Shown here: positions 40,806 to 46,990 of the stretch, piece after piece
Numbering within the stretch: the stretch's first letter is position 1
Layout of the letters: every line of letters begins with the position of its first letter
Source: Arenimonas caeni
GTDB taxonomy: Bacteria > Pseudomonadota > Gammaproteobacteria > Xanthomonadales > Xanthomonadaceae
Direction: 5' to 3'
Assembly (NCBI RefSeq): GCF_003024235.1
Contig: NZ_KZ679084.1
Span: 62,001 to 126,000 of the forward strand
Length of the DNA: 64,000 nucleotides
Translations under genes and position numbers: made by a program
The notes under the pieces: model-generated
The model's input: the letters and a program-made list of their open reading frames with translations, nothing else
Database searches by the model: none
Told to the model about the DNA's origin: nothing

Positions 40806-40890
<85 letters not shown>

Positions 40891-40913
40891 GCTTTAGGGT
40901 TCACCCCTTCCGA

Positions 40914-40938
40914 AACCCCGCTCCCATGCGGGGTTTTG
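40914..40938 (+). terminator. Element-borne terminator behind tRNA-Leu
   Basis: Stem AACCCCGC (40914-40921) with GCGGGGTT (40928-40935), 6-nt loop, then TTTGCGTTTT. It lies inside the element and replaces the native tRNA terminator now displaced to 47003-47027. Confidence 0.75.
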
Positions 40939-41011
40939 CGTTTTCGGGGCCGTGGAATTCCTAGGTGGGTCCCAGGAAGTGACGGACCCCTGTGCCGGTC
41001 GCCAGACGACC

Positions 41012-42940
41012 ATGAGCACGAACGCCTACCTCTACCGCCGCAACGGCACCTACTACTTCCGCTGGTCCATTCCCTTGGCTTGCCGACTGCGCATGCCGTC
41101 GGGCGAACCGTGCGAGCTTCGCCTATCCCTGCGAACGACCCACCCGCCAACGGCTCGCCATCGGGCGGCACGCTGCTGGCTGGCTGCCCTAGAGGCCGCT
41201 GAGGGCTTCCTTGTCTCGGGTCGGGCCATCCGATACAACGACCTGATAGCCGCCATCAGGACCCGTGCCCGCATGCCCACCGAAACCACCGCCCCGGAAA
41301 CGCCCCTGCTGTCGCTAGGAGCCGTCGCCGGGACCGTGGAGGTGCAGGCCCTCAAGGACACGATGGCGCACCTGGACGGACTCGGGGCCACGTTCTACTT
41401 ATCGGTCGAACATCGCGCCGCGAATCTCTGGGTGGACCGCCCCGAGCCCGACGGGACGCTTCGAGCGGAACTGGTCGAGCGGCTGGAGGACTTCGCGGAC
41501 GCCACGGCCTATCTCCCCCGCTCCAGCGTGACGGCGGCCCTCGCTGCGAATGAAAACCTGCTCAAGGTCGAGGCCGTGTTTTCCCGCCTGCCAGGCATGT
41601 GGGAGGGGTCCGAGCACGCCAGGCGACCCTACGAGGTTCGGTTCGATACCCCGCTGGTCGTCAACCTCAGCGCCCTTCTCGTGGATGCCGAGCTGGCCAA
41701 GGCCGCACCCAAGGCTATACAGCCGACGAGGACCGCCGCCTCGCCCGGAGGCATGCCCAGCCCCACCTGCGACCCCATCCTACTGTCCAAAGGCTTGGAG
41801 CTATGGCTCGAGCGGAACGACAGCTGGGCTGATGCCACCAAGGCGAACTACACCAGCTACGTTCAGCAGTTCATCGACGTGGTCGGCAAGGACTTGTCCA
41901 CCACCGACCTGACGGCTGACCACTTCACTGAGTTCGACAATATCGTCCGCAACCTGCCGAAGAACTGGAAGTCACTTCAGACCACGACGGGCAAGACCCT
42001 GCGTGCGCTCGCCAAGGAGAAGAAACCAAAGGGCGGCGGGACTTCCGCCAAGACCCTGAAGGAGAAGGCCGCCACCATCTCACAGTTTTTCGAGTTCTTG
42101 GAAGGGCAAGGTTACTGGCACGGACGATACGGCAAGAAGCTGTTTGAGGGCATCAAGTCGAACAAGAAGAGCCAGAAGCACCGAAAGGTATTCAGCAACG
42201 ACGAGCTGAAGACCCTGTTCACCGGCGAGGGCCTTCCGACGCTTCAGAGCGCGAAGTTCGCCCTCTACGTGTGGGGAAGCGTGCTGCTGCTATACACCGG
42301 CGCACGCCCCTCGGAAATCAGCCAGCTACGCCGAGAGGATGTCATCAAGGACCAGGACGGCACGTGGTACCTGCGGATTGCGGCCTCGGAGGAGCATGAG
42401 GACGAGGACGATGGAAAGCGGCTCAAGACGGACGCCAGCTCCCGCTCGGTCCCCCTCCACCCCGAGGTCATGGCCTTGGGCTTCGAGGTCTTCCTCGCCC
42501 ACTTCCAGCCAACTGACCCGCTGTTCCCCGAGGCCATGCGTCACAAGCAGAAGGTCAGCCGGGAGTTGGGTGACTGGTTCAACCAGAAGCTGCTGCCGGC
42601 AGCAGGCCTGAAGGGCGATGGGGCCGTCCTCTACTCCCTTCGCCATACCGTTATCGAGCGGTTCAAGGGGGACGCGTCCCTTGACTACCTTGCCTGCGCC
42701 TACGTGGGCCACAGCACCGACGAGGACTCACAGCGCCCCAACAAGGTTTTCGTGGATACCTATGGGCGTGCCCACAGCCCCGCAACGCTGGCGGCGAGGC
42801 TGCATCCGATGCTGGACTTCGGCATCGACTGGACGCCCATCAAGAAGCTGATTGCCGATAAGGACACGGAATGGAAAGGCGGGAGGTTGCAACTGGCCCG
42901 GGCGAAGAAGGCCGCCAAGCGGGTCGCCAAGCAGCGGTAG
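41012..42940 (+). CDS. Tyrosine recombinase / integrase of the tRNA-Leu element
   Basis: Site-specific recombinase expected to integrate and excise the element. It has 642 residues from ATG at 41012, whose opening (MSTNAYLYRRNGTYYFRWSIP) matches the DUF6538-type N-terminus of such integrases; an in-frame ATG at 40952 is less likely. The C-terminal catalytic domain has the first Arg in YTGARPSEISQLRRED, then YSLRHT (second Arg; the usual first His of HxxR is Tyr), YVGHST and the nucleophile Tyr in FVDTYGRAH. It lies directly next to attL. Confidence 0.9.
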   Translation: MSTNAYLYRRNGTYYFRWSIPLACRLRMPSGEPCELRLSLRTTHPPTARHRAARCWLAALEAAEGFLVSGRAIRYNDLIAAIRTRARMPTETTAPETPLLSLGAVAGTVEVQALKDTMAHLDGLGATFYLSVEHRAANLWVDRPEPDGTLRAELVERLEDFADATAYLPRSSVTAALAANENLLKVEAVFSRLPGMWEGSEHARRPYEVRFDTPLVVNLSALLVDAELAKAAPKAIQPTRTAASPGGMPSPTCDPILLSKGLELWLERNDSWADATKANYTSYVQQFIDVVGKDLSTTDLTADHFTEFDNIVRNLPKNWKSLQTTTGKTLRALAKEKKPKGGGTSAKTLKEKAATISQFFEFLEGQGYWHGRYGKKLFEGIKSNKKSQKHRKVFSNDELKTLFTGEGLPTLQSAKFALYVWGSVLLLYTGARPSEISQLRREDVIKDQDGTWYLRIAASEEHEDEDDGKRLKTDASSRSVPLHPEVMALGFEVFLAHFQPTDPLFPEAMRHKQKVSRELGDWFNQKLLPAAGLKGDGAVLYSLRHTVIERFKGDASLDYLACAYVGHSTDEDSQRPNKVFVDTYGRAHSPATLAARLHPMLDFGIDWTPIKKLIADKDTEWKGGRLQLARAKKAAKRVAKQR

Positions 42941-43208
42941 CCCCTGATTGCAGCCAAGGCTAACTACATGGGCAATACCTCGCTCTTTTCGCGGCGCAGC
43001 ACAGCGCTTCTATATACCTATGATGATTACCCAAGCGGAATCGTTCTCGGCAGCCAGCCGAGCTAGCAAACCTGACCCCATGGGACGGGTTGCTTTTGCG
43101 TTGGTGTAATGAAAGTTGGTGAAAGACCCAAGCGTATTTTACCCTGGCTAAATGTTGACCAGCCAATTTCATACTCTGTAAACTCCTTTGAAATGAAGGA
43201 GACGAGCA
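42941..43208. other. Intergenic region of the element, no supported gene
   Basis: AT-rich 268 bp between the integrase and the HUH protein gene. Only short overlapping frames are present and none has a family resemblance. It carries the promoter below and is the natural place for a replication origin of the element, but no iterons or clear hairpin were found by eye. Confidence 0.5.
43155..43184 (+). promoter_or_regulatory. Putative promoter of the HUH protein gene
   Basis: TTGACC (43155-43160) and TAAACT (43179-43184) with 18-bp spacing; the AAGGAG ribosome-binding site follows at 43196-43201. Confidence 0.5.
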
Positions 43209-43856
43209 TTGCTCGGACACCCCTTCTGGAGATTGCAGAATGTGGAAAAGTTGAGTCATGCAAACGTTAGAGACGCTTGGAAGACGTTTCTGACCGGTAT
43301 CGAGCCGGATTACTTCGTCACACTAACGTATAGCATCGGGCTACCGGACAAAGCAGCAGCCTCGTCGCTTCAGTTTTTCCTAAGGTGTATCTTCAAGGCA
43401 CTCCCCAAGCGTATCCGCCTTAGGGCCATGGGGGCTGTATGCGTTGAGAGAACGACCATTGGGAAGTATGCGGGGACTCACCACTTCCATATTCTGTTTG
43501 CCCGCATTGACGATGCAGCCAAGGACTACGAGTCCAAATTCAAAGCGATAGCGGAGAAGGCTGCCGGCAGATTGAAAACACGCAAGAACATCCCGTTGGT
43601 TCCCCCCAAGAACATTCACACAGTATCTGTATGGGACTCAGATGGCTTAGCAGATTATGTGACTAAGCGAGGCAAGTTTCCTTTTGACCGAGATGGTCTA
43701 AAGGTCTGGCTCTTCGACAGGAATGGCGTCGACCATGACTTACCTGGCGAGGAATCCATGATTTGGGTAGACACTAACCGTGATTCCTCAGATGCCCGCA
43801 ATCATCGGAGGCGCAGCCGTTACAGCCCAGTTCCGGAGCCACTTAGGTATAGGTGA
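43209..43856 (+). CDS. HUH/Rep-like rolling-circle replication protein
   Basis: Predicted single-strand endonuclease starting rolling-circle replication or transfer. It has 215 residues, more AT-rich than the host genes. The three Rep motifs are in order: FVTLTY (36-41), HHFHILF with the HUH pair His92/His94, and DYVTK with candidate nucleophile Tyr150 and Lys153. The start is TTG at 43209, decided by AAGGAG at 43196-43201 with 7-nt spacing; no ATG lies in frame before motif 2. It follows the integrase by 268 bp. The assignment rests on motifs, not on a named family. Confidence 0.68.
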   Translation: MLGHPFWRLQNVEKLSHANVRDAWKTFLTGIEPDYFVTLTYSIGLPDKAAASSLQFFLRCIFKALPKRIRLRAMGAVCVERTTIGKYAGTHHFHILFARIDDAAKDYESKFKAIAEKAAGRLKTRKNIPLVPPKNIHTVSVWDSDGLADYVTKRGKFPFDRDGLKVWLFDRNGVDHDLPGEESMIWVDTNRDSSDARNHRRRSRYSPVPEPLRYR

Positions 43857-43952
43857 GATATTCATGCAATCCTAGTTTCGGCTTTCAGAAGTCAATTGAC
43901 TTCATACCCAAAGAAAACTGAACTAGCGACTGCCAGGGGTGCTTGCCGCTGG

Positions 43953-44528
43953 TCAGAATGGCAACATGCACTGCCCCGTCCGAACCGCAGCCGTCGTCAT
44001 CGAGCGCGCCTCGACCAGGGACAATTCGGGGTCGAGCATCGTCGCCAAGATAGCCATTCGACGCTCTAGTTCAGCACCCCACGCCTTAAGGTGGACCGCA
44101 ACCCGCCGACCTGAGAGCACATCTCGCCGGATTACCTCCACCTCGCCCCTCAAGTAGTCTTGAAAGCCAACGTCTTTCTGGCGAGGAGAAGGGAATGGAA
44201 TATGGCTCCAGTCGATTCCGTACCCTTCAAGGTCAGTCAGTAGGCCAGCAAGCCCGTCCTCGAGTATGTCGACCGCTGACATGGTGGTTACCAGGCGATG
44301 GACACCGAGCTCATACAGTCGAGCGACATCGGCAGCGAGGTCCCTCCGGATTTCGAGCACGCCCCTGTTCTGATGAAGGACGGTCGCTCGATATCCCGGC
44401 GCTACTGTTGCGTATATAAGCCCGACTCGCAGGAAGACAGGCACGACTACCAGCGGATGGGATTCGCTGGTGTGGTCTGGGAGTTGAACTTCGAACGGGT
44501 TGAAGGATGAGCTGCTCAAGCAGCCCAT
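43953..44528 (-). CDS. Phosphatase-fold protein without catalytic residues
   Basis: A 191-residue protein resembling small CDKN3/dual-specificity phosphatases: LAADVARLYELGVHRLVTTM, then IDWSHIPFPSPRQKD and a helix before the P-loop. At the P-loop, homologues have HCxxGxxR; here it reads VAVHLKAWGAELERRM, with Leu147 for Cys and Glu153 for Arg. It is therefore expected to be inactive, perhaps binding phosphoprotein or nucleotide. The start overlaps the upstream gene by 13 bp. Last gene of the recombinase operon. Confidence 0.6.
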   Translation of the reverse strand: MGCLSSSSFNPFEVQLPDHTSESHPLVVVPVFLRVGLIYATVAPGYRATVLHQNRGVLEIRRDLAADVARLYELGVHRLVTTMSAVDILEDGLAGLLTDLEGYGIDWSHIPFPSPRQKDVGFQDYLRGEVEVIRRDVLSGRRVAVHLKAWGAELERRMAILATMLDPELSLVEARSMTTAAVRTGQCMLPF

Positions 44529-45010
44529 CCCTTCAAGTTCGGACTGTAGGGCGACAGGTAGCGACGCTCGGGATACCGGGCAGCATAGGCAGCGAGGTGC
44601 GCTTCGAAGGTGTCATCAAGCACGGGCTCAACCAGCGAACCGAAGTCGGCTCGAACCTCACGGCAGAATCGGCTATCACCGACCAGCAACTCGCCTACGC
44701 GCCCCACCCATCGCACCGTCACCCGGTCTTGGGCAGCGTTGATGGCAGCTAGGCCTAGCTCACCCACCGTAGAAGCGCCTGAGAAGCCACAGGACGCGAT
44801 GTCAGGCTCTTCCTCTACCTCGCCAGCGCCCAAGGCCGATTCAGCCCCAAACAATTCGGCACGCAGGAATTTGAGGGCATCGGCATCGGTGGCGAACCAG
44901 TAGAAACCCTGGTGGCCACCAGCCCCAAGGGCAAAGGCAAGGAACAGCCCGACCGGGCAAGACCGAGGGTCACGCTGCCGCGGGTCGGAAGGGACGAGTG
45001 CGAAGGCCAT
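44516..45010 (-). CDS. Hypothetical protein of the tRNA-Leu element
   Basis: 164 residues, no family recognised. Begins MAFALVPSDPRQRDPRSC; a hydrophobic stretch LFLAFALGAGG is too short to be a sure membrane segment. The middle GFYWFATDADALKFLRAEL and a Glu-rich patch EVEEEPD are distinctive. ATG at 45010 shares its A with the recombinase stop (TGATG), and its end overlaps the pseudo-phosphatase start by 13 bp, so the three proteins are made together. An in-frame ATG at 45022 is also possible. Confidence 0.6.
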   Translation of the reverse strand: MAFALVPSDPRQRDPRSCPVGLFLAFALGAGGHQGFYWFATDADALKFLRAELFGAESALGAGEVEEEPDIASCGFSGASTVGELGLAAINAAQDRVTVRWVGRVGELLVGDSRFCREVRADFGSLVEPVLDDTFEAHLAAYAARYPERRYLSPYSPNLKGWAA

Positions 45011-45576
45011 CAGTGCGGGCACTCCTGGAGCGCCCGATAGATGGTCGCCCGCCCAACCTGATACTTGTCCTGCAACTGGCCAACGGAGAAGCCCTCGTCC
45101 TCCTTCAGGCGGCGGATGGTGACCTTTTGCTCAGCGGTCAGGGCCTCGCGGCGACCGAACCGAACCCCCTTGGCCAAGGCCATCTTGATGCCATCGGCCT
45201 GCCGCTCGGCACGGATGTCTGCCTCGAAGGCGGCGAACGCGCCCAACAGGGAGAACATCAGCCTGCCCTCGGCGGTCGTTGTGTCGATGGACTGGTCAAG
45301 CACCCGAAGAGCCACCCCCTTCTGCTGGAGGGTATCGGCAATCTTGGCGAGGTCCAGCACCGACCGGGCCATGCGGTCGAGACGACTGATGACCAGCACA
45401 TCGCCCTCGCGGACGTAGTTCAGGCAGGCCTGAAGCTCTTTCCGGTTGTCGTACTGCCTGCCGGACTTCTTCTCAGCGAAGACCTTGGTGCAGCCAGCCT
45501 CTTCGAGCTTCTGGAGCTGGACATCCAGCGACTGGCCAATGGATGAGACGCGGGCGTAACCGACGGTATGGCTCAT
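45010..45576 (-). CDS. Serine recombinase, resolvase/invertase family
   Basis: Site-specific serine recombinase, 188 residues. The catalytic Ser is in GYARVSSIGQS; ISRLDRMARS and LLGAFAAFEADIRAERQADGI are family signatures. The C-terminal helix-turn-helix is GFSVGQLQDKYQVGRATIYRAL. First gene of the three-gene minus-strand operon, with a strong leaderless-type promoter just upstream. It may resolve dimers of the element or invert a segment; no matching inverted repeats were found. Confidence 0.9.
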   Translation of the reverse strand: MSHTVGYARVSSIGQSLDVQLQKLEEAGCTKVFAEKKSGRQYDNRKELQACLNYVREGDVLVISRLDRMARSVLDLAKIADTLQQKGVALRVLDQSIDTTTAEGRLMFSLLGAFAAFEADIRAERQADGIKMALAKGVRFGRREALTAEQKVTIRRLKEDEGFSVGQLQDKYQVGRATIYRALQECPH

Positions 45577-45583
45577 AAATGTT

Positions 45584-45612
45584 ATTATATTCTCTTAGAC
45601 GTTATGATACAA
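45584..45612 (-). promoter_or_regulatory. Promoter of the recombinase operon
   Basis: On the minus strand: TTGTAT (-35, 45612-45607), 17-bp spacer, perfect TATAAT (-10, 45589-45584). The recombinase ATG starts 7 nt after the -10, so the transcript would be leaderless. Imperfect inverted AT-rich repeats here could be the recombinase's own binding site. Confidence 0.7.
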
Positions 45613-45692
45613 GCCATCGGAACGACTTTTGAGACCCCTCCGGGGCAGTCTCGCCGTGTATACATTTCGGAACCGAACCGGACGCATCAGAG

Positions 45693-46592
45693 ATGAAACC
45701 AATAATAGTAATGGCCACCCTCGTCGCAGGCGCCGCCCTATCGTCGACAGCCAATTCAAAAGACCTGAATAAAACTGGCTCGAATCCACAGAGGCAGACC
45801 AGCAGCGGCGAAGTCTACACAGCCATCAATGAGACTCTTTCTGACTCACTTCAGCGCCTGAAAGAGGGGGCCGAAAGCGGCAACACTGACGCACAGTGGC
45901 AGTACGGGGTTGCGCTTATACGCGGATACGCTGGGCGAACTCCGAACAAGCCAGAAGGCGCTCGATGGATTCGCTTAGCCGCCTCTGCCGGAAACCCCAT
46001 CGCACAGACAGCGCTTGGACATCTTTACCTCATCGGCGAAGGCGTACCTCTTGACTATCAAGAGGCACACACATGGACCTCGCGAGCAGCTCTCCAAGGA
46101 CATGTCCCGGCGCAAACCAGATTGGCATCCATGTTCCGCGATGGAATTGGAACAGAGACCAATAGAGCTGAACAGCTTAAATGGCTTGAAGAAGCAGCTC
46201 GCCAAGGCGACTCTGAGTCACAGTACTTAGCCGCCATGCAGTTGCTGCTCGGGGACGGAGTGCAAAAGGACATCCGAAAAGCAATCCACTGGCTTAACTT
46301 GGCCACCACCCAAGGAAACGCAAATGCCCAGGCAACCCTCGCATCCCTTTATTTCAAGGGAGCGGAGGTGCCGGCGAACAGAGGTGAGGCACTGAGACTT
46401 GCTGAACTTTCCGCAGCCCAGAACAATGCTATGGGAATGCAGACCCTCGCAATTATATTACTAACTGACAAGGACAAAGAGCCTGACATCGACCGCGCCA
46501 AATCCCTATTACGAAGGTCTGCAATACTTCTACGCGAAGACCCCGAGGCGCTTATAGATAAGGTAATGCGAATTACTGGACATCGCCAATGA
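45693..46592 (+). CDS. Exported Sel1-repeat protein
   Basis: A 299-residue protein. The signal peptide MKPIIVMATLVAGAALSSTA is followed by about six Sel1-like repeats (for example GNTDAQWQYGVALIRGY, GNPIAQTALGHLYLIGEGV, GDSESQYLAAMQLLLGDGV), which form an alpha-solenoid for protein binding. It is divergent from the recombinase operon (116 bp between starts). GC content is clearly below the host average. Partner unknown. Confidence 0.85.
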   Translation: MKPIIVMATLVAGAALSSTANSKDLNKTGSNPQRQTSSGEVYTAINETLSDSLQRLKEGAESGNTDAQWQYGVALIRGYAGRTPNKPEGARWIRLAASAGNPIAQTALGHLYLIGEGVPLDYQEAHTWTSRAALQGHVPAQTRLASMFRDGIGTETNRAEQLKWLEEAARQGDSESQYLAAMQLLLGDGVQKDIRKAIHWLNLATTQGNANAQATLASLYFKGAEVPANRGEALRLAELSAAQNNAMGMQTLAIILLTDKDKEPDIDRAKSLLRRSAILLREDPEALIDKVMRITGHRQ

Positions 46593-46972
46593 TATTGAGC
46601 TCTGCAGACCAGAGGCATACTGACTTCGATGACGACATAAAGCTAATAACAGGCGCTCATTAGCCCGGCGGAACTGCGGATATCACTGATTCGCCCAAGC
46701 GGCACGCGCTACGAATTTTTCTCACCCCCACATTCCTGTGCGAGGGCCTAGCACGGCTTCAAGAGAGCCGAACGTACGGAAGCCAGCAGACCGCAAGGCT
46801 GCACCGGATGGACGAGCTGGCGGCGATGGAGTTCCTGCTCGACAAGATGAAGAACACCAAGTAGGTTGAGTGGCTAGGGCTGTGTCGTTCACGTGTGCCA
46901 ACTGGAAGCCCCTTTTGGCGCGAAGCCCATTAGAATCAACGGGTTACGAGCGATGCTGCCGGCAGAGGCCCT
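46593..46972. other. Right end of the element, mostly non-coding
   Basis: 380 bp after the Sel1 gene. Only a 66-codon open frame (46664-46864, +) catches the eye: it has no ATG near its start and ends in MDELAAMEFLLDKMKNTK, with the only in-frame ATGs at or after 46808. It may be the C-terminal remnant of a lost gene. Otherwise nothing is supported. Confidence 0.45.
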
Positions 46973-46990
46973 GTCCTCTCCTGGGCACCA
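46973..46990 (+). other. attR core, 18-bp direct repeat
   Basis: Identical to 40873-40890 (tRNA-Leu 3' end). The flanking sequence does not continue the tRNA, so this marks the right junction of the 6.1-kb element. Confidence 0.93.

What the first reader, a model, noticed from the sequence alone, without database searches (positions are those of the whole stretch)
40873..46990. Compact 6.1-kb element in tRNA-Leu(CAG) with integrase, HUH protein and a pseudo-phosphatase operon
Seen: an 18-bp identical repeat exactly 6,100 bp apart, the left copy being the tRNA 3' end; integrase next to attL; AT-richer genes in between; no phage structural or conjugation genes. Inference: a small satellite-like or plasmid-like integrative element. 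The combination of tyrosine integrase, HUH/Rep-like protein, serine recombinase, uncharacterised coupled pair and exported Sel1 protein is not one I recognise as a described class.
Basis: partly seen in the sequence, partly recalled or inferred. Interest (0 to 1): 0.78.

Follow-up and report, generated by a model that had tools for sequence, protein, structure and literature searches.

The report
Small integrated element in tRNA-Leu gene
A 6.1-kb piece of foreign DNA has inserted itself cleanly into the end of a leucine tRNA gene; it carries its own integrase, a replication-type nicking protein and a set of very rare genes, one of which looks like a dead relative of a phosphatase linked to bacterial immunity.

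Summary
The 18-bp tRNA-Leu(CAG) 3' end recurs exactly 6,100 bp downstream and occurs only twice in the 2.95-Mb genome, even with two mismatches allowed. In same-genus genome G103 the tRNA is followed directly by the kind of sequence that here follows attR: an empty site. Same-genus G297 keeps a 116-bp stretch, 82% identical to this element's left end, at the same tRNA.

It is a compact integrative element: tyrosine integrase, HUH Rep-like protein, a leftward operon of serine recombinase, orphan protein P4 and P3, and a Sel1 protein. P3 is a divergent relative of DSP/CDKN3-type phosphatases that lacks the aligned catalytic Cys, Arg and a conserved Asp. No close relative of the integrase, HUH protein or P4 turned up in the searches made for each.

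The chassis works like known integrative plasmids or mobilizable elements, so I call it a new variant of a known kind. The unusual part is the pseudo-phosphatase/P4 pair: the same genome encodes an ADP-ribosylglycohydrolase-phosphatase fusion with intact motif near conflict-type genes. A decoy role is possible but untested; mobility today is unproven.

The parts
40806..40890 (+). tRNA-Leu(CAG), target gene; its 3' end is kept intact at the left junction
   Evidence: ARAGORN; Rfam tRNA
40873..40890 (+). attL core (18 bp, the tRNA 3' end)
   Evidence: repeat D15; only two copies in the genome
40891..41011 (+). left-end leader between attL and integrase, with a hairpin/terminator-like site (40913-40936); window 40897-41010 aligns over 116 columns at 82% identity with a stretch at the same tRNA in G297, identity fading at the integrase start
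41012..42940 (+). tyrosine integrase (642 aa; DUF6538 N-terminal domain; catalytic Arg, Lys, Arg, His, Tyr present, Tyr in place of the first His of HxxR)
   Evidence: DUF6538 E 1e-9, above cut-off; Phage_integrase E 1.5e-4, 22.0 bits against a cut-off of 27.1; phrog_1 integrase E 4e-25; alignment
43209..43856 (+). HUH Rep-like protein (215 aa, TTG start after AAGGAG; motifs FVTLTY, HFHILF, DYVTK by inspection)
   Evidence: PF23343 E 0.0034 (18.1 bits, cut-off 27.8) and phrog_3584 E 0.0038, both weak; low-confidence model, mean pLDDT 46, with HFH on its third strand
43953..44528 (-). P3, pseudo-phosphatase related to DSP/CDKN3-type enzymes (HC to HL, P-loop lost)
   Evidence: no Pfam match of its own
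44516..45022 (-). P4, orphan protein (168 aa, GTG start), overlapping both neighbours by 13 bp
   Evidence: no credible relative; coding-like codon-position GC
45010..45576 (-). small serine recombinase (resolvase/invertase type), first gene of the P4-P3 operon; TATAAT 7 nt before the ATG
   Evidence: PF00239 E 2e-39, phrog_125 E 8e-58; the 15 plasmid records listed of at least 5000 (capped) are 55-58% identical, one further record lies in the 60-80% band; sequence
45693..46592 (+). Sel1-repeat protein with signal-peptide-like N-terminus (by inspection)
   Evidence: PF08238 E 3e-35, phrog_8741 E 1e-42
46798..46862 (+). 65-bp fragment of a host-type rho gene near its 3' end, 97% identical to the genome's own rho
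   Evidence: gene confirmed as rho
46973..46990 (+). attR core (18 bp)
   Evidence: the sequence after it resembles what follows the tRNA directly in G103

Best explanation
A 6.1-kb site-specific integrative element of the integrative-plasmid / mobilizable type. Shown: it sits at the 3' end of tRNA-Leu(CAG), the left junction keeps the tRNA whole, an empty site exists in a relative, and it encodes a tyrosine integrase with a nearly complete catalytic set. Inferred: the integrase recombines the 18-bp core to insert and excise a circle. The HUH protein nicks that circle for rolling-circle replication or for mobilisation by a helper conjugation system. The serine recombinase resolves multimers. 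The P4/P3 pair and the Sel1 protein are cargo; P3 most likely acts by binding, as a catalytically dead phosphatase fold.
For: 18-bp att pair, only two copies in the genome. Empty site in G103: the 60 bases after the tRNA score 48 (maximum 60) against the attR side and -2 against the attL side. Related left end in G297 at the same tRNA. GC drop. Integrase, serine recombinase and Sel1 assignments, weak HUH assignment. Catalytic residues in the integrase alignment. HUH motif on the third strand of a low-confidence model. P3 shares 26 of 61 positions conserved in at least 9 of 10 relatives, but only 2 of 11 in the P-loop stretch, with Cys, Arg and the conserved Asp changed.
Against: No excision, circle or copy-number data. 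No excisionase-like frame recognised among the listed frames of 50 aa or more. The HUH family matches are weak and the model has mean pLDDT 46; a fold search could not be run. Pfam's Phage_integrase match is below its cut-off and Tyr replaces the His that all four aligned relatives have at HxxR. No clear origin hairpin; oriT and partition genes not tested beyond the family scans. No second copy of the element found, so mobility today is unproven. P-loop loss in P3 against loss elsewhere gives Fisher p 0.097, and an Arg lies three residues beyond the aligned position, so an alternative register is possible.
Confidence: 0.72

Rival explanations
1. An integrative mobilizable element in the strict sense: the HUH protein is a relaxase acting at an oriT in the element, with a helper conjugative system.
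For: HUH proteins of Rep type serve as relaxases in IMEs (abstract of PMC7563843); small size and integrase-plus-HUH layout.
Against: The only profile matches, both weak, are to replication proteins (PF23343, phrog_3584), not relaxases; no mobilisation gene among the six proteins; oriT not tested.
Confidence: 0.25
2. A phage satellite or a remnant of a small ssDNA phage that lost its structural genes.
For: Tyrosine integrase at a tRNA, weak Rep match of ORF2/G2P type, compact size; one phage record with a weak integrase match (25.5%), which by inspection also encodes a small serine recombinase.
Against: No structural, packaging or phage-regulation family among the six proteins; no match in the phage records for P3, HUH or P4 nor in viral contigs for P4, HUH, integrase or P3, the contig scans finding close relatives only.
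Confidence: 0.12
3. A decaying genomic island: once mobile, now a fixed mosaic whose genes are accidental leftovers.
For: GC varies between genes (51.5-63.8%); a 65-bp rho fragment and about 380 bp without a clear gene at the right end; G297 shows a left end without integrase.
Against: Perfect 18-bp att pair, six open frames of plausible length, overlapping genes kept in register.
Confidence: 0.2

Closest known systems
Integrative mobilizable elements with Rep-type relaxases (IME_oriTs, MobT; PMC7563843, abstract and outline seen)
   Same: Integrase plus a Rep-type protein in a small integrated element without its own conjugation machinery
   Different: Those sit mostly in oriT of ICEs in Firmicutes; here the target is tRNA-Leu(CAG), the HUH protein is not shown to be a relaxase and the cargo is unrelated
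Tycheposons and other proposed satellites/hitchers (PMC11389934, passages seen; details of tycheposons recalled)
   Same: Tyrosine recombinase beside a tRNA, small size, cargo genes (recalled)
   Different: No sequence relation tested; HUH Rep and P4/P3 not known to me from them
ARG-centric ADP-ribose conflict systems with rhodanese/DSP phosphatase (PMC9503650, passages and whole section 3.8 seen)
   Same: P3 is related to phosphatases of this kind; the same genome encodes an ADP-ribosylglycohydrolase-phosphatase fusion within about 6 kb of AAA ATPase, NERD-helicase and REase-ARP genes
   Different: P3 lacks the catalytic residues; no ADP-ribosylglycohydrolase, Nudix/WYL regulator or chaperone family matched in the element

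Membership tests
Tyrosine-integrase integrative element at a tRNA | Direct repeat of the tRNA 3' end bounding the insert, integrase inside | tested here: met
Tyrosine-integrase integrative element at a tRNA | Empty site in a relative with the same flank | tested here: met
   G103
Tyrosine-integrase integrative element at a tRNA | Excision and circle formation | not testable with these tools
   no reads available
Integrative mobilizable element | Relaxase and oriT | tested here: inconclusive
   HUH protein matches Rep families weakly; oriT not tested
Rolling-circle integrative plasmid | HUH Rep with motifs I-III and a double-strand origin | tested here: inconclusive
   motifs seen by inspection, low-confidence model; no clear origin hairpin in the spacers searched
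Phage satellite | Packaging, capsid-modifying or phage-regulation genes | tested here: not met
   no such match among the six proteins
Active DSP/CDKN3-type phosphatase | HCx5R active-site loop and general acid | tested here: not met
   10 of 10 aligned relatives keep Cys and Arg; P3 has Leu and Glu there, and Ser at the aligned conserved Asp; that this Asp is the general acid is recalled
ARG-centric conflict system | ADP-ribosylglycohydrolase gene or domain coupled to the phosphatase | tested here: not met
   none among the element's six proteins

The most novel reading that the evidence does not exclude
P3, with P4 as partner, is an element-borne inactive decoy of the phosphatase arm of ARG-centric ADP-ribose immune systems. 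It would bind their substrate, product or partner protein and blunt that immunity in hosts such as this one, which encodes an ARG-phosphatase fusion with intact motif. That would make a pseudo-phosphatase a counter-defence protein of a minimal integrative element.
Probability: 0.08. Interest if true: 0.75.

Novelty: new variant of a known kind. Interest (0 to 1): 0.42.

Why it matters
It is a clean, minimal integrative element with a defined insertion site and a gene set not found elsewhere in the collections searched. If P3/P4 act on ADP-ribose immune systems, it would give a handle on counter-measures against systems that the paper I read (PMC9503650) only predicts. I saw no pseudo-phosphatase in such a role in the titles listed by two searches, but those show only 12 of 154 and 6 of 8,988 papers, so this is no proof of absence.

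Tried and rejected
HUH relatives: 2 of 296 other family genomes matched at E about 2e-4, but both matched frames contain a stop, so I rejected them. 0 of 359 other class genomes. None in plasmids, phages (E <= 0.001) or viral contigs. No genome-contig scan was run for HUH or P3.

P4 relatives: 0 of 296 other family genomes. 2 of 359 other class genomes at E 0.002-0.006, both antisense to a long plausible frame, rejected. None in plasmids, phages, genome contigs or viral contigs; the contig scans need exact short peptides, so distant relatives would be missed.

Integrase relatives: 3 of 296 other family genomes at E <= 1e-20, 27-34% identical over part of the protein, in other elements beside tRNA-Asp or tRNA-Ser. 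None in genome or viral contigs or, at E <= 1e-20, plasmids. One weak phage record. None in G297 or G103 at E <= 0.001.

P3 relatives: 8 of 296 other family genomes plus a second place in the window's own genome, 2 plasmids, no phage record, no viral contig.

The rho fragment as a second attachment site: rejected, since it lies inside rho and none of the 27 same-genus genomes searched (own included, 22 of 27 matched) had a better donor than 97% apart from the element itself (only the own match was confirmed as rho). The left-end pattern was not found in viral contigs. Promoter scan of the region: 1 found, 1.8 expected by chance, and it did not report the recombinase site.

The P4 model (mean pLDDT 37) is not usable. 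PDB sequence searches with P3 and HUH gave no meaningful hit. In one search the query for the downstream TPR protein was out of frame, and the frames for two host genes were wrong; neither is used. Paper searches: DUF6538, 0 papers; 0 papers; PMC12324425 seen as abstract only and not used as a comparison.
Full report
Observation. The window holds tRNA-Leu(CAG) at 40806-40890. Its last 18 bases recur at 46973-46990, 6,100 bp on; extended to 22 bp, 21 agree. In the whole 2.95-Mb genome, with up to two mismatches, only these two places match. GC is 58.8% between the repeats and about 71% outside.

Empty and occupied sites. All 27 genomes held for the genus, own included, gave a match to the tRNA query. 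I looked for a 17-bp tRNA end in 29 of the loci that call returned (L021-L049) and found it in 20, the window's own included; the other nine were not compared. The 60 bases after the tRNA were scored against both sides of the element (maximum 60). G103 scores 48 for the attR side and -2 for the attL side: an empty site. G297 scores 40 for the attL side and -6.5 for the attR side; its match to the element is 116 columns at 82% identity, fading at the integrase start, and no integrase relative was found in G297 (the tool notes that an empty answer there shows little). So a related element has probably used this site before. Of the other 17, 14 score higher for the attR side and 3 slightly higher for the attL side, none as clearly as G103 or G297. 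G180, one of those three, carries other AT-rich frames at the site, with no integrase that I recognised.

Anatomy. Left to right: a leader with a terminator-like hairpin, the tRNA's own terminator-like site now lying beyond attR; a 642-aa tyrosine integrase with a DUF6538 domain; an HUH protein; a leftward operon of serine recombinase, P4 and P3, each overlapping the next by 13 bp; and a Sel1 protein. In the integrase alignment the catalytic Arg, Lys, Arg, His and Tyr are present; the first His of HxxR is Tyr, whereas the four aligned relatives have His (catalytic positions recalled). Its Pfam Phage_integrase match is below the cut-off, its PHROG integrase match is strong. The HUH protein has FVTLTY, HFHILF and DYVTK in order, weak matches to Rep families, and a low-confidence model with HFH on the third strand and strands and helices in the order I recall for HUH nucleases.

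P3. Genome and plasmid searches link P3 to bacterial DSP/CDKN3-type phosphatases at 24-34% identity. P3 itself matches no Pfam family even at E 10. In an alignment with ten relatives, all ten keep HCK(G/D)GLGRAG, while P3 reads HLKAWGAELE, and the conserved Asp of the PIxD stretch is Ser. Of 61 positions conserved in at least 9 of 10, P3 keeps 26, but 2 of 11 in the P-loop stretch (Fisher p 0.097), so the count alone does not prove targeted loss; an Arg three residues on leaves room for another register. By inspection three relatives (L010, L011, L015) are fused to, and two (L009, L016) lie beside, an ADP-ribosylglycohydrolase; Pfam was run only on this genome's own fusion (PF03747 E 6e-58 with PTP-SAK and CDKN3 matches). 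Within about 6 kb of it lie AAA ATPase, NERD-helicase and REase-ARP genes. In part that resembles the ARG-centric systems predicted to counter viral ADP-ribosylation (PMC9503650, section 3.8); I did not look for their Nudix/WYL regulators or chaperones. P3 is not especially close to the genome's own fusion (26%); its best family match is a stand-alone phosphatase in G071 (34%).

P4. No credible relative was found. Codon-position GC is coding-like and it overlaps two genes in register, so I treat it as real but cannot assign a fold.

Mechanism. Shown: site, boundaries, gene content, changed phosphatase residues. Inferred: integrase-driven insertion and excision, HUH nicking for replication or mobilisation, multimer resolution by the serine recombinase, and a binding role for P3 with P4. 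The operon places the recombinase and the P4/P3 pair under one promoter region, whose TATAAT lies 7 nt before the recombinase ATG, suggesting a leaderless message (inference; the promoter scan did not list it).

Novelty. The chassis is of a known kind. The gene set is not matched elsewhere in the collections searched, and the pseudo-phosphatase/P4 pair is the part worth pursuing.

Noticed in passing
G000:C21, L106:6891-8372 (minus strand) and neighbours: The window's own genome encodes an ADP-ribosylglycohydrolase-phosphatase fusion within about 6 kb of AAA ATPase, NERD-UvrD helicase and REase-ARP genes, in part resembling a predicted ARG-centric conflict system.
   Followed up: partly
window 46798-46862: A 65-bp piece of a host-type rho gene sits inside the element near attR, 97% identical to the genome's own rho; how it got there is unexplained.
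   Followed up: partly
L051:1147-1266 (G297): A left-end scar of a related element at the same tRNA, without integrase, followed by a Sel1-like frame with an exported-looking start, by inspection.
   Followed up: partly
L057:700-5050 (G180): The same tRNA site holds a different AT-rich cluster of small frames, some exported-looking by inspection, suggesting an insertion hotspot.
   Followed up: partly
window 45577-45610: Perfect TATAAT 7 nt upstream of the serine recombinase ATG, as for a leaderless transcript.
   Followed up: no
L066:3037-3540 (plasmid NZ_CP087161.1): A DSP relative of P3 lies among arsenic resistance genes between arsH and an ArsO-family gene.
   Followed up: no
L009:6-1364 (G237): A GmrSD-type restriction gene lies beside the phosphatase relative of P3 in G237, another link of these phosphatases to defence-type genes.
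   Followed up: no
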